Shown one piece after another: positions 1,065 to 11,462 of a DNA stretch of 11,462 nucleotides (position 1 is the stretch's first letter; every line of letters begins with the position of its first letter). The DNA is from Candidatus Aminicenantes bacterium UBA4085 (GTDB taxonomy: Bacteria; Acidobacteriota; Aminicenantia; Aminicenantales; UBA4085). Below the pieces are notes generated by a model. It was not told the DNA's origin, did not search any database, and saw nothing but the letters and a program-made list of their open reading frames with translations. The translations under genes and the position numbers were made by a program. The stretch covers positions 3,518 to 14,979 of the forward strand of contig DFYJ01000099.1 of assembly GCA_002383325.1 (NCBI GenBank), given 5' to 3'.

Positions 1065-1242
1065 AGGGGTCAGGTCTCAACATTCAACATTTCTGCCAAC
1101 CCCGGTTGACGGTCTGGATAAATCGGCCCATCAGCTTCTTTACGGATCGCTAGGTAGCGCTATCTCTGGTGTTTATAATGTCGATGATGGCCCAGGCGCG
1201 GAAACGAGCCAGAGAAATGTTGAATGTTGAGACCTGACCCCT
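1065..1242. repeat. Miniature inverted-repeat element A (178 bp)
   Basis: A perfect 30-bp inverted repeat (1065-1094 and 1213-1242) encloses 118 bp. Each arm reads, from the outside, GGGGTCAGGTCT, then CAACATT twice in tandem, then TCT. The same core ends the transposase element at 3410-4769, so this is most likely a non-autonomous copy mobilised by a related transposase. A 5-bp hairpin (1148-1152 with 1155-1159) lies exactly at the centre of the element. There is no target-site duplication, as expected for the IS200/IS605 group. It fills the gap between the convergent rmlB and SDR genes and could fold into a long stem in transcripts from either side. Confidence 0.85.
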
Positions 1243-1244
1243 GA

Positions 1245-2243
1245 TTAAACGCGGGCCCGCCAGTAGTCGAGGATGTCGCGCAGGGTCTGATCCAGCGGGA
1301 CGCGCGGCGTCCAGCCCGTGGCTTCACGCAGCTTGCCGTTGGCGCCGGCTAAGTACGGGATGTCGACCTTGCGGATGCGGGTGGGGTCGACCGCGTAGGC
1401 GATCTTGCGGCGCGAATAGGACAGCAGCTTCTTCAGGATCCATTCCAGGCTGACGGCGCGGCCGGAACAGACGTTGTAGACTTCGCCCGCCTTTCCCTTG
1501 GCCATGAGCATGGCGTAGGCGCGGACGACGTCGCGGACATCGGAGTAGTCGCGGCGCAGGGCCAGGTTGCCGACCCGGATGACGGGCTTGGCGGATGACG
1601 CGGGGGCGTCGTCGTGGGCCTTGTACTTCTCGATGAGGGCGATCTGGCGGGCCCAATCCGAGCAGACGAAATCGGCCGTCTGCCCCGGTCCTGTGTGCGG
1701 GAAGGGGCGGGCGGCGATGATCGGCAGCCTCTCCCGCAGGGCATAGAACTCGCCCAGCAGCTCGCCGCTGACCTTGGTGAAAGCGTAGGGGCTGACCACC
1801 CCGCCCCGGTCCCGCTCGCGGCACGGTCGGCGGAGCGGCGTCAGAAAGCCGTAGACGTCCGAGGAGCTGACGAACAGGATGCGGGCCCGCGGGGTATGGC
1901 GGAGGGCGGACTCGTAGAGGTTGAAGGTCCCACGCAGATTGGTGTCGAAGGTCTCGGCCCGCTTCTCCCAGGACAGGCGGACCTGGGACAGCGCCGCCAG
2001 ATGGTAGATCCGGGCCGGGCGGATGGAGGCGACGGCTTTGTCGACGGCGTCAGCGTCGCGCAGGTCGAGATGGACGAGGCGAACGTTCGGCTGGACCCGG
2101 CAGAGGTCGGCGCACGACTCGGGGCGCTCGGGGAAGCAGGAGCCGAAGATCTCGGCCGAGGCGCCCCGCTCGTTGAGCCGGGACACGAGGTGGCGGCCGA
2201 CAAATCCTGTGGCTCCGGTGATGAATATTCGCTGGGATGACAT
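1245..2243 (-). CDS. GDP-4-keto-6-deoxymannose reductase-like extended SDR (Rmd family)
   Basis: Probable NAD(P)-dependent reductase making GDP-D-rhamnose from GDP-4-keto-6-deoxy-mannose in the cytoplasm. The 332-residue product has the nucleotide motif GATGFVG (10-16), the active-site strand SSSDVYG (126-132), YAFTK (Tyr153, Lys157) and a late block with RVGN and RRDYSDVRD (about 224-238), as in known Rmd proteins. In the substrate loop RPFPHTGPGQ, Pro replaces the Asn usually seen in RPFNHIGPGQ. A start at 2255 would add four residues (MRIA). I prefer the ATG at 2243 because MSSQRIFITG aligns with the family start and a weak GGAT precedes it; neither start has a strong ribosome site. The next gene upstream on the same strand is a paralog, 195 nt away with element B between. 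The stop codon is 3 nt from the CCCC end of element A. A related deoxysugar epimerase or reductase remains possible. Confidence 0.8.
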   Translation of the reverse strand: MSSQRIFITGATGFVGRHLVSRLNERGASAEIFGSCFPERPESCADLCRVQPNVRLVHLDLRDADAVDKAVASIRPARIYHLAALSQVRLSWEKRAETFDTNLRGTFNLYESALRHTPRARILFVSSSDVYGFLTPLRRPCRERDRGGVVSPYAFTKVSGELLGEFYALRERLPIIAARPFPHTGPGQTADFVCSDWARQIALIEKYKAHDDAPASSAKPVIRVGNLALRRDYSDVRDVVRAYAMLMAKGKAGEVYNVCSGRAVSLEWILKKLLSYSRRKIAYAVDPTRIRKVDIPYLAGANGKLREATGWTPRVPLDQTLRDILDYWRARV

Positions 2244-2290
2244 GGCTATCCGCATCTTACGACGCTGCCCAGACCGGAATTCTTCCCATA

Positions 2291-2307
2291 GGGGCCAGGC
2301 CTAGATA
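2291..2307. repeat. Possible eroded left end of element B
   Basis: GGGGCCAGGCCT (2291-2302) differs from the family core GGGGTCAGGTCT at two positions, both T to C, and lies 144 nt from the intact opposite-facing end at 2435. That spacing fits a small element like A. The sequence beyond the core has diverged, so the pairing is tentative. Confidence 0.35.
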
Positions 2308-2404
2308 GGGCATCCATCCCCGGAGAGGAAGTATCCCGCAAAGGGGATTCAGCCTTTCTCATGCTGTCTCGTCGTCATTCGCGGCGTTTTTTTCGCCTGA
2401 TGTG

Positions 2405-2435
2405 TTGGAAATGTCAAATGTCAAGACCTGACCCC
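2405..2435 (-). repeat. Terminal repeat of element B
   Basis: Read on the minus strand, this is GGGGTCAGGTCT (2435-2424), then TGACATT twice in tandem (2423-2417 and 2416-2410), then TCC. It has the same architecture as the ends of elements A, C and D but its own 7-mer. It ends 3 nt after the stop codon of the downstream-facing SDR gene at 2439, the same distance as element A keeps from the paralogous gene. No intact partner arm is present; the best candidate is the eroded core at 2291. Confidence 0.75.
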
Positions 2436-2438
2436 TTC

Positions 2439-3395
2439 TTAAACGCGCTCGCGCCAGTAGTCCAGAAGATCGAGCAGGGTCTTGGCAAACGGGATGACCG
2501 GCTCCCAGCCCGTCTGCTTGCGGAACTTTGACGGGTCGGCCTGCAGGATCTGGACATCGCTCGGCCGCAGGCGGTCCGGGTCGACCTTGACCTCAACCTT
2601 GACCTTGGTCAGCCCCAGCAGCATCTCCAGCAGCTGGTGCATGGAGATCGTGCCGCCGGTGCCGACGTTGTAGACGTCGCCGTCCTCGCCCCTCTCGGTC
2701 GCCAGCCAGTAGGCCTTGACCATGTCGCGCACGTCGGTGAAGTCGCGCTTGGCGTCCAGGTTGCCGACGTGGATGACCGGCTCGCGCAGGCCTTTCTCGA
2801 TCTGGGCCAGCTGCTTGGCGAAGTTGGAGGTGACGAAGACGTCGCCGCGGCGCGGGCCGGTGTGGTTGAAGCCGCGGGTCCGGATGGCCCGCAGGCCGTA
2901 GCTCTTGAAATACTGGTAGCCGAGCAGGTCCTGGGCCACCTTGGAGACGGCGTAGGGCGAAAGCGGCCGCAGCGGGTTGGTCTCCTTCATCGGGACCTCG
3001 TCGGCGAAGACCATGCCGTACTCCTCGCTGGAACCGGCGATCTGGATGCGGGGATTGAGCTTGAGGTCCAGGAGGGCCTCGAAGAGGTTGATCTGGCCGA
3101 CGGAGTTGATCTGGAAGGTCTCGGCCGGCAGCCGCCAGGAGGTGGGCACGAAGCTCTGGGCGGCCAGGTGAAAGATCTTGTCGGGGCGGGCGGCCTGGAG
3201 GGCTTTTTTGAGAGAGACCATGTCCTTGAGGTCGGCCTCGTGAAGCTCGATCTTGCCCGCCAGGTGGGCGATGTTGTCCATGCGGCTGCGCCAGCGGACG
3301 ATGCCGTGGACGCGGGCGCCAGGGTGCTCGGCCAGGATGTATTCGGCCAGGTGGCTGCCGGCGAATCCGGTGATGCCGGTGATGAGGACGTTCAT
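2439..3395 (-). CDS. GDP-mannose 4,6-dehydratase / RMD-like extended SDR
   Basis: A cytoplasmic enzyme of GDP-deoxysugar synthesis. The 318-residue product has GITGFAG (7-13) for the dinucleotide, HLAAQSFVPTSW (76-87), GSSEEYGM (121-128), YAVSK (Tyr148, Lys152), GFNHTGPRRGDVFVT (175-189) and GNLDAKRDFTDVRD (211-224). GNLDAKRD and the Arg-rich VRWRSRMDNI segment recall Gmd, while GSSEEYG with the overall length (Gmd is usually 340-370 residues) recalls the Aneurinibacillus-type RMD, which I recall as having both activities. Next to an Rmd-like paralog, it would logically supply the dehydratase step, but this is inference. The start at 3395 follows GGGAGGG (3400-3406) with a 4-nt spacer; an overlapping ATG at 3399 is in another frame. 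Its 5' end is only 14 nt from the transposase element, so its present promoter is probably inside that element. Confidence 0.82.
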   Translation of the reverse strand: MNVLITGITGFAGSHLAEYILAEHPGARVHGIVRWRSRMDNIAHLAGKIELHEADLKDMVSLKKALQAARPDKIFHLAAQSFVPTSWRLPAETFQINSVGQINLFEALLDLKLNPRIQIAGSSEEYGMVFADEVPMKETNPLRPLSPYAVSKVAQDLLGYQYFKSYGLRAIRTRGFNHTGPRRGDVFVTSNFAKQLAQIEKGLREPVIHVGNLDAKRDFTDVRDMVKAYWLATERGEDGDVYNVGTGGTISMHQLLEMLLGLTKVKVEVKVDPDRLRPSDVQILQADPSKFRKQTGWEPVIPFAKTLLDLLDYWRERV

Positions 3396-3399
3396 GCAT

Positions 3400-3406
3400 C
3401 CCTCCC
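3400..3406 (-). promoter_or_regulatory. Ribosome binding site of the SDR gene at 3395
   Basis: GGGAGGG on the minus strand, 4 nt before the ATG. It is wedged between the start codon and the left end of the transposase element at 3410, so the insertion spared the translation signal but separated it from any original promoter. Confidence 0.7.
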
Positions 3407-3429
3407 TTGGGGGTCAGGTCTTAAGATTC

Positions 3430-3458
3430 AAGATATCTCGTAAAATATTTCTTATCAA
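3430..3458 (-). promoter_or_regulatory. Candidate outward-facing promoter at the left end of element C
   Basis: On the minus strand, TTGATA (3458-3453) and TATCTT (3435-3430) are separated by exactly 17 nt. They match the sigma-70 boxes at 5 of 6 and 4 of 6 positions. Transcription would start near 3423, inside the terminal repeat, and give the SDR gene at 3395 a leader of about 28 nt with its ribosome site. The minus 10 box overlaps the second 7-mer of the terminal repeat. Confidence 0.45.
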
Positions 3459-3564
3459 TAGATAGCGCCACGTCCGATGCCCTCTGATTAGAAGAAACGG
3501 TGATTAAGATACCATAACCGTCCTCCGCGGCAAAACGCATCCGGCTTTCCTCGACCCGGCCGAT

Positions 3565-3580
3565 GAGAATTTTCATTCTC
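3565..3580 (+). other. Hairpin in the transposase leader
   Basis: GAGAAT (3565-3570) and ATTCTC (3575-3580) form a perfect 6-bp stem with a TTTC loop, 40 nt before the transposase start. It could limit expression or be a recognition structure. It also covers an upstream in-frame ATG at 3563, which argues against that start. Confidence 0.4.
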
Positions 3581-3608
3581 CAAGCCGTCCCCTTACACAG
3601 AGGGCCAT

Positions 3609-3613
3609 GGAGG
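3609..3613 (+). promoter_or_regulatory. Ribosome binding site that sets the transposase start
   Basis: GGAGG with a 6-nt spacer to the ATG at 3620. The upstream ATG at 3563 has no such site. Confidence 0.75.
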
Positions 3614-3619
3614 TTCGAA

Positions 3620-4765
3620 ATGGCACGCCCTCTTCGCATCCAATACCACGGTGCTTCGTACCACATCACGTGCCGCGGCATCCGGAAAGATCCGATCTTC
3701 TTCGCCGATCGCGACCGCCGGGAATTCATCGACAAGATGAATGAGATGGCGGTTAAATACGCTTTCATCCTCTACGCTTATTGCCTGATGCCCAATCACT
3801 ATCACCTTTTTCTCAAGACTCCGCTGGCCAACCTCTCCGAGGGCATCCACCAGTTGAACGCCGCCTACGCGAACTGGCTCAAGAGCAAGCGGAAGCTCGT
3901 CGGCCATATCTTCCAGGGGCGTTTCAAGTCCATCCTGGTTGAGGAAGAGACGTATGCCGTCAACCTATCCCTTTACATCCACCTCAATCCCTGCCGGTGG
4001 CGGCTGGCCAAGCGCCCCGAAGACTACGCCTGGAGCAGCTGTCGCGACTATCTCGGCCTGCGCGGACTGCTGACGCCGACCCTTAGCCCTGACCGGGTGC
4101 TGTCTCTATTTAGCGACGACATCGAACCGGCCCGCCGGCGCTATCGCGAGCTGCTGATCGAGCGTCGCGACATGGATGATCCCCTGAAGGAGTCATTTCG
4201 GCGCATCGCTCTTGGAAGCCCGTCGTTTATCGACAAGATTCGTAAGATCGTCAATGAGAGAGCCTCCATCGCACGCGCCAGGGAGCATTCGGCCCGCGAT
4301 ATCGGCGCCTGCAGGGCGATCTCCCCGGCCCGGGTTTTTGAAGCCGTTTCGGCCGTCACCGGCTGCTCCGTCCAGGAGATCCTGGGGAAGAGGAGAGGCC
4401 GACCGTGGCGCCCGATGGGCATGTACCTGGTTAAAAAGCACTGCGCCATCGGGCTTCGGAAGGCGGGCGAGATATGGGGGGTCGATTACGCCGTGATCAG
4501 CTTCAACGCCGGACGTTTTGCGGAGGCGCGGGCCTCGAACGCGGAGCTGGCCGCCACGGTTGATTCGATCGAGACCCGAATCGCGCAGCTGCGCGAAGCG
4601 GATGTTGCGTCAAGGGCGAGCGGGACAGCAGAGCCGGCAGTCGGATCCTCCCCAGAGCCCGGCGCTGGATCGGCGCCCCCGGCCGCTTCTGGACCCGCGG
4701 ATAAGCCAGGATCGCGGATCTCCCGGCCCGGCAATAAAGGAGATAACTTGAATCTTAAGACCTGA
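3620..4765 (+). CDS. REP-associated tyrosine transposase (Y1, HUH) with DnaA-like C-terminal domain
   Basis: A single-strand DNA transposase of the IS200/IS605-like RAYT group. Residues 1-145 form the Y1 domain: MARPLRIQYHGASYHIT at the start, the HUH metal site at PNHYHLF (His60, His62), GRFKSILV (100-107), and TYAVNLSLYIHLNP (111-124), in which Tyr112 is the likely catalytic tyrosine by position. Residues 232-300 resemble DnaA domain IV, a double-strand DNA binding helix-turn-helix: SPARVFEAVSAVTGCSVQEI, then GKRRGRPWRPMGMYLVKK, then GVDYAVISFNAGRF. After about residue 325 comes an Ala/Pro/Gly/Ser-rich tail. The last residues NLNLKT and the stop codon are encoded by the right terminal repeat, so the gene and element ends overlap. 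The start at 3620 is set by GGAGG. The open frame from 3563 would add 19 residues unlike the family. The gene converges on purF with a 13-nt gap. It appears intact and possibly active. Confidence 0.9.
   Translation: MARPLRIQYHGASYHITCRGIRKDPIFFADRDRREFIDKMNEMAVKYAFILYAYCLMPNHYHLFLKTPLANLSEGIHQLNAAYANWLKSKRKLVGHIFQGRFKSILVEEETYAVNLSLYIHLNPCRWRLAKRPEDYAWSSCRDYLGLRGLLTPTLSPDRVLSLFSDDIEPARRRYRELLIERRDMDDPLKESFRRIALGSPSFIDKIRKIVNERASIARAREHSARDIGACRAISPARVFEAVSAVTGCSVQEILGKRRGRPWRPMGMYLVKKHCAIGLRKAGEIWGVDYAVISFNAGRFAEARASNAELAATVDSIETRIAQLREADVASRASGTAEPAVGSSPEPGAGSAPPAASGPADKPGSRISRPGNKGDNLNLKT
4695..4717 (+). other. Subterminal hairpin near the right end of element C
   Basis: CCGCGGAT (4695-4702) pairs with ATCGCGG (4711-4717), leaving one bulged G and an 8-nt loop. 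It lies 52 nt inside the right tip, within the codons of the transposase tail. Subterminal hairpins are typical recognition structures for IS200/IS605 and REP enzymes, but no equivalent was found at the left end. Confidence 0.3.
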
Positions 4766-4778
4766 CCCCTAACGGACC

Positions 4779-6251
4779 CTAATGGATCGGCAGGGGCAGC
4801 TGGGCGGCGCCGGAAGCCGTGCGCTCCTTCTCGATCCGGTCCAGCATCTCCTGGGTCACATCGCCCGTGACGTAGTCCCCGTCGAAGCAGGCGGCGCAAA
4901 AGTGGCCCAGGGCCGGGTTCTCCATCCGCACGGCCTTCTTCAGGTTGTCGAGCGTCTGGTAGATGACCCGGTCGGCGTCCAGGAACTGGGCGATCTGCTC
5001 CAGGCTGCGGTCGCGGGCCAGGAACTCGGTCCGGGTCTGCATGTCGATGCCGTAGACGCAGGGGAAGCGAAGCGGAGGGGACGTCACCGCGAAATAGACG
5101 TGCTTGGCCCCGCACTCCCGGACCATCTCGACAATGGCCTGCGAGGTGGTGCCGCGGACGATGCTGTCGTCGACCAGCAGGATGTCGCGGTCCTTGAACT
5201 CGCTGGCGATGGTGTTCAGCTTGACCCGGACGCTGTGCTTGCGCTTCTGCTGGTCCGGCATGATGAAGGTGCGGCCGATGTAGCGATTTTTGACCAGGGC
5301 CTCGCGGTAGGGCAGGTCCAGCGAGCGGGCGATCTCGATGGCCGCATCGCGCGACGAGTCGGGCACCGGGACGACCACATCGATATGGAGGCCTTGCTTG
5401 CGGATGTCCTCGGCCAGCAGCTGCCCCAGGCGCATGCGGACGTGGTAGACGACGGTCCCCTCGATGATGGCGTCGGGGCGGGCGAAGTAGACCCACTCGA
5501 AGAGGCAGGGCGCGTGGGTCTTGCTGGACAGCTGGGCGGTGTGGACCTTGCGGCTGCTGTCGATGAAGACGGCCTCCCCGGCCCCGACTTCGCGGAGGTC
5601 CTGGAAGCCCATCAGGTTGAGCGAGACCGTCTCCGAGGCGAAGGCGAACTCGGGCAGGCCCAGGCCGTCGCGCCGGCTCCAGACCAGGGGCTTGATGCCG
5701 TAGGGGTCGCGGAAGGCGACCATCCCCTGCCCGGCGATGTAGGCGATCACGGAGTAGCTGCCGACCACAGCCCCGAAGACGCGGCGCACGGCGTCGAAGA
5801 CCTGCTCCGGCCGCAGAGCGCCGTTGGCCTGCTCCTCCAGGGACTGGGCGAAGACGTTGAGGATGCTCTCGACGTCGTTATCGGAGTTGAGCAGGCGTCG
5901 GTGGTCCCGGGACAGCGACTGGCGCAGCTCGGCGTAGTTCACGACATTGCCGTTGTGGGCCATGATGATCCCGAAGGGGGCGTTCAGCTGGAACGGCTGA
6001 GCGTCCTCGCCACGGCCGCCGCCGACGGTCGGGTAGCGGGTGTGGCCGATGCCGATAGGCCCGCTCAGACGGGCGGCATGGTCCTCCCGGAAGATGTCCC
6101 GGGCCAGGCCGTTGCCCTTCTTGGTGTGAAAACGGCCGTCATAAGTGGTGATGCCGGCCGCGTCCTGGCCCCGGTGCTGAATCCCCATGAGCCCCTGGTG
6201 GAGGTAGGGAAAAGCCGGTTCGTTGACCCAGACTCCGATGACGCCGCACAT
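4779..6251 (-). CDS. purF: Amidophosphoribosyltransferase (glutamine PRPP amidotransferase)
   Basis: Catalyses the committed step of purine synthesis: PRPP plus glutamine gives 5-phosphoribosylamine. The 490-residue product begins MCGVIGVW, so Cys2 is the glutaminase nucleophile once Met1 is removed. GIQHRGQDAAG (23-33), the conserved Arg of GHTRYPT (69-75) and AHNGNVVN (98-105) complete the class II glutaminase domain. The phosphoribosyltransferase domain has the PRPP motif DILLVDDSIVRGTTS (356-370). Cys249, Cys398, Cys452 and Cys455 match the four 4Fe-4S ligands of the Bacillus-type enzyme. Unlike the Bacillus enzyme there is no N-terminal propeptide: no in-frame start codon is seen in the 35 nt upstream. 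The ribosome site is weak (GGAG, about 11 nt away). An extended minus 10 promoter lies upstream. The gene is divergent from the GTPase operon and its 3' end abuts element C. No other pur gene is nearby. Confidence 0.96.
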   Translation of the reverse strand: MCGVIGVWVNEPAFPYLHQGLMGIQHRGQDAAGITTYDGRFHTKKGNGLARDIFREDHAARLSGPIGIGHTRYPTVGGGRGEDAQPFQLNAPFGIIMAHNGNVVNYAELRQSLSRDHRRLLNSDNDVESILNVFAQSLEEQANGALRPEQVFDAVRRVFGAVVGSYSVIAYIAGQGMVAFRDPYGIKPLVWSRRDGLGLPEFAFASETVSLNLMGFQDLREVGAGEAVFIDSSRKVHTAQLSSKTHAPCLFEWVYFARPDAIIEGTVVYHVRMRLGQLLAEDIRKQGLHIDVVVPVPDSSRDAAIEIARSLDLPYREALVKNRYIGRTFIMPDQQKRKHSVRVKLNTIASEFKDRDILLVDDSIVRGTTSQAIVEMVRECGAKHVYFAVTSPPLRFPCVYGIDMQTRTEFLARDRSLEQIAQFLDADRVIYQTLDNLKKAVRMENPALGHFCAACFDGDYVTGDVTQEMLDRIEKERTASGAAQLPLPIH

Positions 6252-6293
6252 GGTGTGATGGTCTCCGCACGCAAGAGAGAGTGAGGACGCTGG

Positions 6294-6302
6294 ATTATAG
6301 CA
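6294..6302 (-). promoter_or_regulatory. Candidate extended minus 10 promoter of purF
   Basis: On the minus strand the sequence is TGCTATAAT, a perfect TGnTATAAT extended minus 10 box. No good minus 35 box is visible, which this promoter type tolerates. Transcription would start near 6287, giving a leader of about 36 nt. Element D begins about 30 nt upstream of the box. Confidence 0.55.
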
Positions 6303-6332
6303 TATTTCGCCCCGCCCGGTACCCCAAGCGTA

Positions 6333-6425
6333 GGGGTCAGGTCTTAAGATTCAAGAATCGACCCCTTGAGTTGACATTTTGTCAACGCTGGTTGTCAGAA
6401 ATCTTGAATCTTAAGACCTGACCCC
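6333..6425. repeat. Miniature palindromic element D (93 bp)
   Basis: A perfect 24-bp inverted repeat (6333-6356 and 6402-6425) encloses 45 bp. Each arm reads GGGGTCAGGTCT, TAAGATT, then a second copy of the 7-mer (CAAGAAT at left, CAAGATT at right); the right arm ends in TCT. The first 24 bases match the left end of element C exactly, so C's transposase is the likely mobiliser. In the middle, GTTGACA (6370-6376) and TGTCAAC (6380-6386) form a perfect 7-bp hairpin with a 3-nt loop, one base from the element centre. It lies between the divergent promoters of purF and the GTPase operon. Confidence 0.85.
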
Positions 6426-8921: not shown

Positions 8922-9854
8922 ATGAACAAGGATTTCATCACGATCCACGACCTCAGCCGCTATGAGTTCCACGAGCTGATGGACCTGACCAAGGACATCA
9001 AGGACGATCCCGAGAAGTACCGCAAGCGCCTCAAAAACCAGATCCTGGCCATGGTCTTCGAGAAGCCCTCGCTGCGGACCCGGATGACCTTCGAGGTCGG
9101 CATGATCGAGCTGGGCGGCAAAGCCATCTATCTCAGCCCCAACGAGGTCCAGGTCGGCAAGCGGGAGACGGTCGAGGACATCGCCCACAACCTGGAGCGC
9201 TGGGTGGACGGCATCATGATCCGCACCTTCGCCCACGACAACATCCTCCGGCTGGCCAAGGCCGCCTCGATCCCGGTCATCAACGCGTTGACCGACCTCC
9301 TCCACCCCTGCCAGGCCATGGCCGACTTCTTCACCCTGATCGAGCACAAGGGCGGCCTGAACAAGGTCAAGCTGGCCTGGTCGGGCGACGGCAACAACGT
9401 CTGCCACAGCCTGATGCTGGCCGCGGCCAAGGCCGGAGCCGCGTTCGCCGCCGCCGTGCCCCAGGGCTACGAGCCCGACCCCGAGATCGTCCGCTGGGCC
9501 CGGGAGGACGGCCGGGAGACCGGCTTCGAGCTGCTCATCACCCACGACCCGGCCGAAGCGGTCGCGGGCGCCGACGCCATCTACGCCGACGTTTGGACAT
9601 CCATGGGCCAGGAGGCGGAGAAGGACGAGCGGCTCCGCATCTTCAGCCCCTACCAGGTCAACGACGCCCTGATGGCCAAAGCCAAGCCCGACGCCGTCTT
9701 CATGCACTGCCTGCCGGCCCACCGCGGCGAGGAGGTCACCGCCTCCGTCTTCGACTCGCCCCGCTCCATCGTCTTCGACCAAGCCGAAAACCGCCTTCAT
9801 GCGCAGAAGGCGATTATGCTAACATTGATGGGAAAGAAAGAGAGCCATGGATAA
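8922..9854 (+). CDS. Ornithine carbamoyltransferase
   Basis: Interconverts carbamoyl phosphate plus ornithine with citrulline plus phosphate; it may serve arginine synthesis (argF) or citrulline breakdown (arcB). The 310-residue product shows the carbamoyl phosphate loop FEKPSLRTR (46-54), LLHPCQAMADF (126-136), GDGNNVCHS (155-163), the ornithine loop DVWTSMGQE (223-231) and MHCLPAHRGEEV (261-272). HCLP and the SMG loop mark it as an ornithine enzyme rather than an aspartate or acetylornithine one. AGGAAAGGA (8911-8919) precedes the ATG closely. Being next to carbamate kinase favours a catabolic role, but sequence alone does not settle direction, so I give no symbol. Its last codons overlap the start of the next gene by 8 nt. 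Confidence 0.94.
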   Translation: MNKDFITIHDLSRYEFHELMDLTKDIKDDPEKYRKRLKNQILAMVFEKPSLRTRMTFEVGMIELGGKAIYLSPNEVQVGKRETVEDIAHNLERWVDGIMIRTFAHDNILRLAKAASIPVINALTDLLHPCQAMADFFTLIEHKGGLNKVKLAWSGDGNNVCHSLMLAAAKAGAAFAAAVPQGYEPDPEIVRWAREDGRETGFELLITHDPAEAVAGADAIYADVWTSMGQEAEKDERLRIFSPYQVNDALMAKAKPDAVFMHCLPAHRGEEVTASVFDSPRSIVFDQAENRLHAQKAIMLTLMGKKESHG

Positions 9855-11462
9855 GGACAACTCGCTCGTCCAGGTCACCCCGGACGACATCGCCTTCCTG
9901 GAAGGGGAATTGGGCCGGACCCGCCGGCCGTTCTCCCTCCAAGAGATGACCCAAACGCTGGCCTTCCGCAAGACGGCCGGCCAGCGCTCGGAGACGGTCA
10001 AGATCTACGACCCCAACGCGGTCTACGAGGTGGGCGACTCCATCATCAAGGAGTACGACGAGCACCTCACGGTCGGGTCGCGGGTTCAGGAGCCCTTCCA
10101 GGGCACCGTCGTCCTCAAGGTCGTCCGCAAGATCCAGGACAAGTCCCTGGACTGCGAGATGCTGGAGGTCGACTACACCGGCGGCGGCGTCTTCCGCAAG
10201 TACGTCGATTACATGGCCAAGACCAAGACCCTGGTCCTGCTGCCGTCCAACTACGGCCTGACCAACGCGGCGCCCGCGATCATGGGGGCCGCCTCCGACC
10301 CCCGGCTGACCGAGCTGCCGATGACCGAGCGGGACGTCAAGACGCTGGAGCGCGCCATCAAGGCCGCCCTGATCAAGTCGGCCGCCTTCTTCACCTGGGG
10401 CGACCGCTGGCAGCTGAAGGCCGGCCCGCCGGAGATCGGCGAGGACAAGATCAAGGCCATGGCCGCCCGCCTGGCCGAGCAGGGATGCTCCGCCTCGACC
10501 CCCGAGCTGATCCGCGAGCACTTCGGCTTGGAGCCGTCCTCCGACCTGTTCGAGATCCACTGCCTGTGGCTGAACCATCTGCTGGAGACCAAGCACAAGA
10601 AGGAGTTCGTCCTGGTCTCGCCGGTGGAGTGGGGCCGCTGGCATCTGAAGTCCGCCCTGGCCGCCATGCCCGAGGGCCTGCCGCTGGCGGCCGCGGAAGC
10701 CAAGCTGCCCGAGTTCGACCCGGCCGAGAAGGTCGAGGTCGAGCCGTTCCACGAGTTCCCGCTCAAGGTCTACCTGGGCTGGCGCGAGATCCTCTCCGGC
10801 GGGGTCAAGATCCCCCGCTGGTACAACAAGGAGCTGTCGCACGCCCGCGAGTACTCCTTCGTCAACGCCGAGGACAAGGTCACCCTGACGGCCTACTTCT
10901 TCCCCCTGCTCGGGTACTTCCTGGGCTTCAAGGAGTATTTCGCCGCGGCCAACATCCCCCAGGGCACCAGCCTGACCCTGGAGAAGGCCGGCCCAGCCGC
11001 GTTCCGCTTCTGGGTCAAGAAGGCCAAGAAGAAGATTCAGGTGGCCAAGGTCGCCTACGACCCGGCCGCGGATACCTTCGCCGACGCCGGCGAGGCCCCG
11101 ACCATGGCCCTGCCGAACAAAATCATCTATATCGAGCGCGATCACCTGGCCAAGGTCCTGGCCATGGCCGAGGGGCGCGAGGGCAAGGACCTGCGGGAGC
11201 TGCTGATCCCCATCTTCGAGACCTTCGCCTCCCACTCCATGGCCACGGCCCTGCATTACCTGCGAGCCTACCACCTGGTCGACCTGCTGCGGCGGACGAC
11301 CCAGGAGGACGTCGAGCTGGTCCTGATCAACACGCCCGCCTTCGTCAAGTCGGACAAGAAGAAGGGCGAGTTCTACTACCGCTTGGCCGAGCCCAAGAAG
11401 GCGCTCGTGATCGAGGAAGAGCCGGTGGCCGAGCCGGTGCGGGAGCGCGAGACCGTCATCCT
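9847..11462 (+). CDS. Unrecognised large protein, 3' end beyond the window
   Basis: An open frame of at least 538 codons begins at ATG 9847, overlaps the OTC stop by 8 nt in another frame and has no stop before the window ends. Codon use is as GC-rich as in the genes before it, so it is a genuine operon member, probably translationally coupled. I do not recognise the family. No signal peptide or membrane segment is seen, so it is probably cytoplasmic. Roughly, residues 1-45 are helical and could be a small DNA-binding type domain (PDDIAFLEGEL, FSLQEMTQTLAF). Residues 50-105 look like a beta barrel (YDPNAVYEVGDSIIKEYD, GTVVLKVV). The middle is mixed. Residues about 335-415 again look beta-rich (KVTLTAYFFPLLGYF, IPQGTSLTL). 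About 440-480 is helical (ETFASHSMATALHYLRAY), and the visible end is charged (VIEEEPVAEPVRERE). Function unknown. Confidence 0.75.
   Translation, partial: MDKDNSLVQVTPDDIAFLEGELGRTRRPFSLQEMTQTLAFRKTAGQRSETVKIYDPNAVYEVGDSIIKEYDEHLTVGSRVQEPFQGTVVLKVVRKIQDKSLDCEMLEVDYTGGGVFRKYVDYMAKTKTLVLLPSNYGLTNAAPAIMGAASDPRLTELPMTERDVKTLERAIKAALIKSAAFFTWGDRWQLKAGPPEIGEDKIKAMAARLAEQGCSASTPELIREHFGLEPSSDLFEIHCLWLNHLLETKHKKEFVLVSPVEWGRWHLKSALAAMPEGLPLAAAEAKLPEFDPAEKVEVEPFHEFPLKVYLGWREILSGGVKIPRWYNKELSHAREYSFVNAEDKVTLTAYFFPLLGYFLGFKEYFAAANIPQGTSLTLEKAGPAAFRFWVKKAKKKIQVAKVAYDPAADTFADAGEAPTMALPNKIIYIERDHLAKVLAMAEGREGKDLRELLIPIFETFASHSMATALHYLRAYHLVDLLRRTTQEDVELVLINTPAFVKSDKKKGEFYYRLAEPKKALVIEEEPVAEPVRERETVI

What the first reader, a model, noticed from the sequence alone, without database searches (positions are those of the whole stretch)
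1065..6425. Tandem 7-mers in the element ends vary between elements but change together
After the invariant core GGGGTCAGGTCT, every intact end carries two adjacent 7-mers. Element A has CAACATT twice, B has TGACATT twice, and D has TAAGATT then CAAGATT at its right end. C has TAAGATT then CAAGATA or CAAGTTA. The consensus is YRAVATT twice, followed by TCT. The core is fixed while the 7-mer pair changes in parallel, as expected if each pair is a double binding site read by a particular transposase variant. The DnaA-like domain of the transposase is an attractive reader, since DnaA domain IV binds short repeated sites. This would be a recognition code separating subfamilies within one genome.
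Basis: partly seen in the sequence, partly recalled or inferred. Interest (0 to 1): 0.75.

Follow-up and report, generated by a model that had tools for sequence, protein, structure and literature searches.

The report
Transposon ends with paired 7-base sites
A widespread family of bacterial jumping genes marks each end with a nearly fixed tag followed by two copies of a lineage-specific 7-base word, and the evidence suggests that a DNA-reading part related to the replication starter DnaA reads that word.

Summary
In detail: seven exact GGGGTCAGGTCT cores lie in the window (0 expected), each followed by two similar 7-mers. The elements are TIR-type Y1 transposons (TIRYT/TIRtron, a named family) and their MITEs.

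In 137 non-redundant transposase/TIR pairs, TIR positions 13-26 are a tandem 7-bp repeat: 56% match at lag 7 against 37% expected, z 13.8. It occurs with long transposases (>302 aa), the class of the DnaA-domain-IV-like C-terminus, and is not detected with short-HTH ones (excess 0.22 versus 0.025).

In 71 independent pairs the recognition helix (residues 286-302) is the protein segment that best tracks 7-mer change (rank 1 of 298 windows, p 0.005). Columns aligned with DnaA-box-contacting residues covary with 7-mer positions 2-3. So a DnaA-like reader is well supported, though no binding was tested.

"Change together" holds between subfamilies (one relative: no element joining a G/G and a C/C end among 41), not for variation inside one, and one element carries different 7-mers at its two ends. 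The core also varies, at positions 8-10. The window's genome is not held, so its class-to-transposase match is untested.

The parts
1066..1241 (.). Element A, MITE without transposase; ends GGGGTCAGGTCT + CAACATT CAACATT
1066..1091 (+). A left TIR: core 1066-1077, 7-mers 1078-1084 and 1085-1091
   Evidence: 0 mismatches
1216..1241 (-). A right TIR, identical 7-mers
   Evidence: 0 mismatches
2291..2435 (.). Element B, decayed MITE; left end GGGGCCAGGCCT without 7-mers; bases 1-88 are 77% identical to a G001 MITE
2410..2435 (-). B right TIR: core + TGACATT TGACATT
   Evidence: 0 mismatches
3410..4769 (+). Element C, with its transposase gene (TIRtron, 1360 bp)
3410..3435 (+). C left TIR: core + TAAGATT CAAGATA
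4744..4769 (-). C right TIR: core + TAAGATT CAAGTTA
3620..4765 (+). Transposase (P0001, 381 aa; a 400-aa frame opens at 3563): Y1_Tnp domain, DnaA-domain-IV-like C-terminus; stop codon TGA lies inside the right core
4319..4597 (+). [not shown]
4475..4525 (+). Recognition-helix segment, residues 286-302: the protein segment that best tracks 7-mer change
6333..6425 (.). Element D, 93-bp MITE, 84% identical over its whole length to G001 MITEs
6333..6358 (+). D left TIR: core + TAAGATT CAAGAAT
6400..6425 (-). D right TIR: core + TAAGATT CAAGATT

Best explanation
These are TIR-type Y1 (HUH) transposons of the TIRYT family and their MITEs. Each end is a bipartite recognition site. The terminal 12 bases (GGGGTCARNYCT in most families) form the conserved part next to the cut. 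Positions 13-26 are two head-to-tail copies of a lineage-specific 7-mer. The C-terminal DnaA-domain-IV-like HTH reads each copy through its recognition helix: residues 288-296 face 7-mer positions 2-4, and residue 295 tracks positions 2-3. Two HTHs, plausibly from the two protomers of a Y1 dimer (dimer: recalled), therefore load side by side on one end. Because both copies meet the same helix, both must move when a lineage changes specificity. Copies inside a lineage drift independently within the tolerance of the helix. Shown: the tandem architecture, its tie to the long-protein class, parallel change between families, covariation with the helix. Inferred: physical binding, one HTH per 7-mer, the dimer arrangement, the role of the core in cleavage.
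For: Lag-7 self-match within TIR positions 13-26 (z 13.8, 12.2 and 10.2 for 137, 110 and 64 elements; by position, 85 elements; z 9.6 in the 58 elements without TGAC). In 71 independent pairs, where both copies change at the same position they stay identical to each other in 55 of 143 cases, against 90 of 721 at other positions. Tandem repeat present with long transposases, not detected with short ones. Recognition helix ranks 1 of 298 windows for tracking 7-mers (r 0.33, p 0.005; long only, 60 pairs, r 0.38, p 0.002). Tree-simulated null: 288, 289, 291, 292, 295 and 296 couple to 7-mer positions 2-4, all but 289 clearly in both copies. Q295: A at position 15 in 68 of 72 ends and at 22 in 69 of 72; S295: 0 of 62 and 0 of 62. 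Columns 289, 290, 291 and 295 align with D433, H434, T435 and H439 of E. coli DnaA, reported DnaA-box contacts (PMC7561715, one passage). Fold match to the DnaA-DNA complexes 3pvp and 1j1v.
Against: Single residue-base rules are mostly not significant in strict independent-pair sign tests (many ties). Ranked one by one in those pairs, the best single column is 208, outside the helix. In Mantel tests the Y1 domain tracks the 7-mers better than the C-terminus (0.29 vs 0.23; partial 0.22 vs 0.12), and Y1 residues such as 21, 52, 98 and 99 also couple. Element L249 carries different 7-mers at its two ends. The 7-mers do not look like DnaA boxes. Two HTHs at 7-bp centre-to-centre spacing need a tight fit that was not modelled. 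The short/long cut was chosen after seeing the lengths (two modes).
Confidence: 0.74

Rival explanations
1. The tandem copies are kept alike by copying between neighbouring repeats (slippage or conversion), not by a shared reader.
For: Within-element L/R differences can be matched inside each end: identical parallel change at the same 7-mer position in 4 of 13 double differences, against 2 of 50 at other positions (97 elements); L249 T/T versus C/C.
Against: Homogenisation should act inside genomes, but G001 shows no excess identity between copies beyond column composition except at positions 6-7, which I put down to one MITE type, and G100's second 7-mer is TCACTTG (22) or TCATTTG (21) while the first is mostly TCATTTG (54 of 84). 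It does not predict coupling to the recognition helix or absence in short-HTH relatives.
Confidence: 0.12
2. Each end folds into a REP-like single-strand hairpin and the 7-mers vary as hairpin parts.
For: 91 of 220 ends carry TGAC, complementary to the core GTCA, where 5.9 are expected; these ends fold better than shuffles (mean z -2.1). REP transposases bind folded REPs (PMC8266576, abstract and passages).
Against: The other 129 of 220 ends show no hairpin signal (mean z -0.07), while the lag-7 repeat persists in elements without TGAC (z 9.6, n 58). The two 7-mers are not complementary to each other (1.62 of 7, 1.84 expected). L/R mismatches in the 7-mers are more often transversions than transitions and show no wobble bias (184 elements).
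Confidence: 0.1
3. The Y1 domain, not the DnaA-like domain, reads the 7-mers; helix covariation is a by-product of shared ancestry.
For: Y1 distance has the larger Mantel correlation, also after partialling; residues 98 and 99 couple to TIR 18, 19 and 21.
Against: With whole-protein distance removed, in independent pairs the six best of 298 windows lie at 285-307, in the HTH (long only; 12-column windows, where the ninth is 5-16). The short-HTH relatives share the Y1 domain but show no tandem repeat.
Confidence: 0.1

Closest known systems
TIRYT / TIRtron (De Nocera et al. 2013, PMC3733652; passages read)
   Same: RAYT-like gene between long TIRs, some sharing GGGGWSAS, with repeated TIR families in some genomes; K. 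versatilis and S. maltophilia have several TIRYT genes with different TIRs.
   Different: The passages seen do not mention a tandem 7-bp part of the TIR, nor any link of it to the C-terminal domain; the figure with the TIR sequences is not held.
TnpA-REP subclass 2.1 (Quentin et al. 2018, PMC6006769; passages read)
   Same: Bac_DnaA_C-like long and HTH_23/28-like short C-terminal domains; 20 of 26 described TIRYTs were placed there.
   Different: They noted that GGGGWSAS is unlike a DnaA box, so the domain may not read the target or may read a new one. The new one proposed here is the pair of 7-mers behind the core.
RAYT/REP and REPIN systems (PMC8266576, abstract and passages)
   Different: No GTAG-tagged palindrome at the ends; recognition appears to be by sequence repeats and an added HTH.
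DnaA domain IV and DnaA boxes (1j1v, 3pvp)
   Same: Fold of the C-terminal domain and equivalent base-facing positions.
   Different: The ends show no DnaA-box similarity above shuffles; lineage-specific words in tight tandem replace a fixed 9-mer.

Membership tests
TIRYT / TIRtron | Y1_Tnp (HUH, IS200-like) transposase | tested here: met
   [not shown]
TIRYT / TIRtron | Flanking terminal inverted repeats, here with the GGGGWSAS motif | tested here: met
   GGGGTCAG at both ends of C, 25 of 26 TIR bases alike
TIRYT / TIRtron | Dispersed TIR family in the genome (seen in some members) | tested here: met
   Window A, B, D; 96 and 108 cores in relatives G001 and G090, control 0. The window's own genome is not held
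TnpA-REP subclass 2.1 | Bac_DnaA_C-like or HTH C-terminal domain | tested here: met
   [not shown]
TnpA-REP subclass 2.1 | Placement in the published subclass tree | not tested
   No tree with the published sequences was built
REP/RAYT (REPtron) | GTAG-tagged imperfect palindrome | tested here: not met
   Window ends begin GGGGTCA; 129 of 220 family ends have no hairpin signal. NF047646 REP_Tyr_transpos scores 69 against cutoff 80 for the window protein; a short relative, L274, passes it with 86
DnaA-box binding sites | TTWTNCACA 9-mer | tested here: not met
   3 of 220 ends at 7 of 8 or better, 5.9 expected
Single-strand (IS200/IS605-like) transposition | No target-site duplication | tested here: met
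   126 of 184 elements with no direct flank match, longest match 4 in 2. In G090 12 of 41 short elements have a 2-base match
Single-strand (IS200/IS605-like) transposition | ssDNA circular intermediate, strand-specific cleavage | not testable with these tools
   needs biochemistry

The most novel reading that the evidence does not exclude
A DnaA-type origin-binding domain, fused to a single-strand transposase, has become an evolvable end-reading head. Each end is an iteron-like double site, residues 289/291, 292/295 and 296 read 7-mer positions 2, 3 and 4 colinearly, and lineages change their identity by changing this one helix and both 7-mers while most of the core and the nuclease stay put, so several orthogonal transposon systems with nearly the same core coexist in one cell.
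Probability: 0.42. Interest if true: 0.85.

Novelty: new variant of a known kind. Interest (0 to 1): 0.72.

Why it matters
TIRYT transposons were described in 2013, and the role of their DnaA-like domain was left open in 2018: no target reading, a new target, or replication-fork targeting (passages). The results here name a concrete target, two 7-mers behind the core, and the residues likely to read it. That makes the question testable with one binding assay and one helix swap. If right, these elements are a natural example of a single-strand transposase whose end specificity sits in a small separable module, and they suggest how several families of small repeats stay apart in one genome.

Tried and rejected
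DnaA-box likeness of the ends: none. REP-like hairpin as the general rule: only TGAC-bearing ends. Single-strand stem pairing between the two TIRs as the reason for L=R identity: no wobble bias in the 7-mers; a weak bias in the core (26 versus 12, p 0.034). Target-site duplication: none found. Viral contigs as a source of more elements: 1 locus. Specific residue-base sign tests: underpowered. Decoding TIR classes from protein C-termini (the ORF often runs into the right TIR; tails such as NLKT, NVKT, NVET) hinted that CAACATT- and TGACATT-type ends belong to other transposase clades; not counted as evidence. A search for printed reports of tandem 7-mers in these ends showed none in the listed titles and abstract starts; beyond these I read only the passages named, and subscription papers are not held.
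Full report

What family it is. De Nocera et al. 2013 named such units TIRtrons and their proteins TIRYT; some of the TIRs share GGGGWSAS (PMC3733652, passages). Quentin et al. 2018 placed 20 of the 26 in subclass 2.1, with long Bac_DnaA_C-like or short HTH-like C-termini, and wrote that the domain may not read the target or may read a new one (PMC6006769, passages). The elements are members of that known kind. The question was whether the 7-mers are more than decoration.

Data. No genome is held for the window. Among loci held, leaving out 100 loci that served the counts of ends in G001 and G090, 280 distinct ORFs matched the family model. 184 have a pair of flanking inverted ends with at least 20 of the first 26 bases alike; 96 have none by this rule. 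142 of the 184 are full length; 42 are not and were used in the length comparison. The end search demanded a loose core ([AG]G[AG]G[AT][CG]A and a few bases more), so the constancy of GGGGTCA is partly built in; it puts no demand on positions 13-26 other than likeness of the two ends.

Tandem 7-mers are a family feature. Between positions 13 and 26 bases match at lag 7 in 0.565 of comparisons against 0.368 when second halves are dealt among elements (z 13.8, 137 of the 142 kept at under 80% identity; z 12.2 and 10.2 at 60% and 50%, 110 and 64 elements). The next highest lag is 8 (z 5.2). By position (85 elements of the first 97) the signal covers 13-20 to 19-26, is absent for starts 1-11, and is weak at 12-19 and 20-27. 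L=R identity falls from 0.72 at position 25 to background by position 30. So the TIR is a 12-base core plus two copies of a 7-mer. Core positions 8-10 vary among families; 11-12 are nearly CT.

They change together between lineages. In 71 phylogenetically independent pairs, change at one position of the first copy goes with change at the same position of the second (diagonal excess 0.107, p 0.011). Where both copies change they remain identical to each other in 55 of 143 same-position cases against 90 of 721 other-position cases (long proteins only 51 of 119 against 75 of 586). Inside genomes the picture differs. G001 has mainly one class, and no excess identity between copies except at positions 6-7, which I put down to one MITE type (96 ends). 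G090 has two main classes, with the same base at 7-mer position 4 in 0.92 of 102 ends read (of 108) against 0.48 expected. Of 41 short elements there, 24 are G/G and 13 C/C at both ends, 4 have other combinations (one of them with C and G inside one end), and none joins a G/G to a C/C end. In G100, 84 ends were read out of 362: 48 are TCATTTG-like in both copies, as in resident L227 (a few are its own ends), 2 are TGACAAT-like in both, as in resident L212, and 34 are partly or wholly unclassified; 2 of the 3 CATCT-core ends are of the L212 class by their first 7-mer. The second copy varies at position 4 while the first mostly does not.

Who reads them. First, architecture: protein lengths fall in two groups (183 elements). 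With long proteins (over 302 aa, 84 distinct TIRs) the lag-7 match is 0.60 against 0.37 (z 12.4). With short ones (40 distinct TIRs) it is 0.42 against 0.39 (excess 0.025, z 1.3), and 0 of 200 equal-sized long samples were that low. The short set includes one truncated ORF (L236) and two elements with GGGGACAC cores (L159, L160). By Pfam, two of three short proteins pass the HTH_23 cutoff and none matches Bac_DnaA_C; of the long, P0023 and P0038 pass Bac_DnaA_C, P0012 and the window protein match it below cutoff, and L016 (303 aa) does not match. Of the 120 homologues listed for the window protein, 101 bear a precomputed PF08299, the closest dozen not. The cut at 302 was chosen after seeing the lengths.

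Second, covariation. With whole-protein distance removed, segment 286-302 of the protein, the recognition helix, tracks 7-mer distance best among 298 windows (r 0.33, permutation p 0.005; long only, 60 pairs, r 0.38, p 0.002). Against null characters simulated on the protein tree, residues 289 and 291 couple mainly to 7-mer position 2, 292 to 3, 295 to 2-3, 296 to 4 and 288 to 3, all but 289 clearly in both copies. Q295 goes with A at position 15 in 68 of 72 ends and at 22 in 69 of 72; with S295 A is never seen (0 of 62 each). By the HMM alignment 280, 289, 290, 291 and 295 correspond to P423, D433, H434, T435 and H439 of E. coli DnaA, listed with R399 as DnaA-box contacts in PMC7561715 (one passage); R399 was not placed. 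These five columns rank 218, 15, 62, 13 and 2 of 292 for the 7-mers (p 0.010), and 290 ranks 2 for the core. Core position 10 couples to Y1 residue 77 (R with T in 168 of 168) and to residue 290 (Y with T in 162 of 164).

Against this. Plain Mantel correlations are higher for the Y1 domain (0.29) than for the C-terminus (0.23), also after partialling (0.22 versus 0.12, 93 elements); Y1 residues such as 98 and 99 couple too. In the independent pairs the best single column is 208, outside the helix. Sign tests for single residue-base rules are mostly ties and not significant, except that S291 goes against A14 (0 against 6, p 0.031). L249 has TGATATT GGATATT at one end and TGACATT GGACAAA at the other. 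Its 87% identical relative L248 differs most at the C-terminus (HTH 74%, following segment 60%, Y1 92%) and has G-type copies at one end, which fits the model, but one pair proves nothing. 91 of 220 ends carry TGAC complementary to the core GTCA, so part of the family might fold small hairpins.

Verdict. The 7-mers are very probably tandem binding sites of the DnaA-like domain. Binding itself is untested.

Noticed in passing
window 4744-4765: The transposase reading frame runs into its own right TIR and stops at TGA inside the core, so the protein ends in ...NLNLKT. Several relatives end in NLKT-, NVKT- or NVET-like tails, so a protein C-terminus can hint at the TIR class.
   Followed up: partly
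window 2291-2435: B's left 88 bases are 77% identical to a G001 MITE (in L095) whose other end is AAGATT class, while B's right end is TGACATT class: the same MITE interior seems to carry different 7-mer classes in two genomes.
   Followed up: partly
G001 ends (L088, L095, L120, L127): At least 12 of 96 core-bearing ends have no second 7-mer; several carry GACGGCATCCGTC, a possible small hairpin.
   Followed up: no
G090 short elements: Base before GGGG is A and base after CCCC is T in 40 of 41 elements, unlike G001: longer TIR or insertion preference.
   Followed up: no
G100: 362 GGGGTCANNTCT copies in a 2.5 Mb genome (control 1), a very heavy load of this repeat.
   Followed up: partly
L135 860-904 and 1072-1116: About 45-bp mini-elements: one full end directly joined to an inverted partial core (GGGGTCAGGCC); similar short ends in G090.
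   Followed up: no
TIR position 10: The strongest single couplings in the data set are core position 10 with Y1 residue 77 and HTH residue 290.
   Followed up: partly
window 9847-11460: Open frame of at least 538 aa with no Pfam match at E up to 1, downstream of an amino-acid-kinase-family gene and a carbamoyltransferase gene.
   Followed up: no
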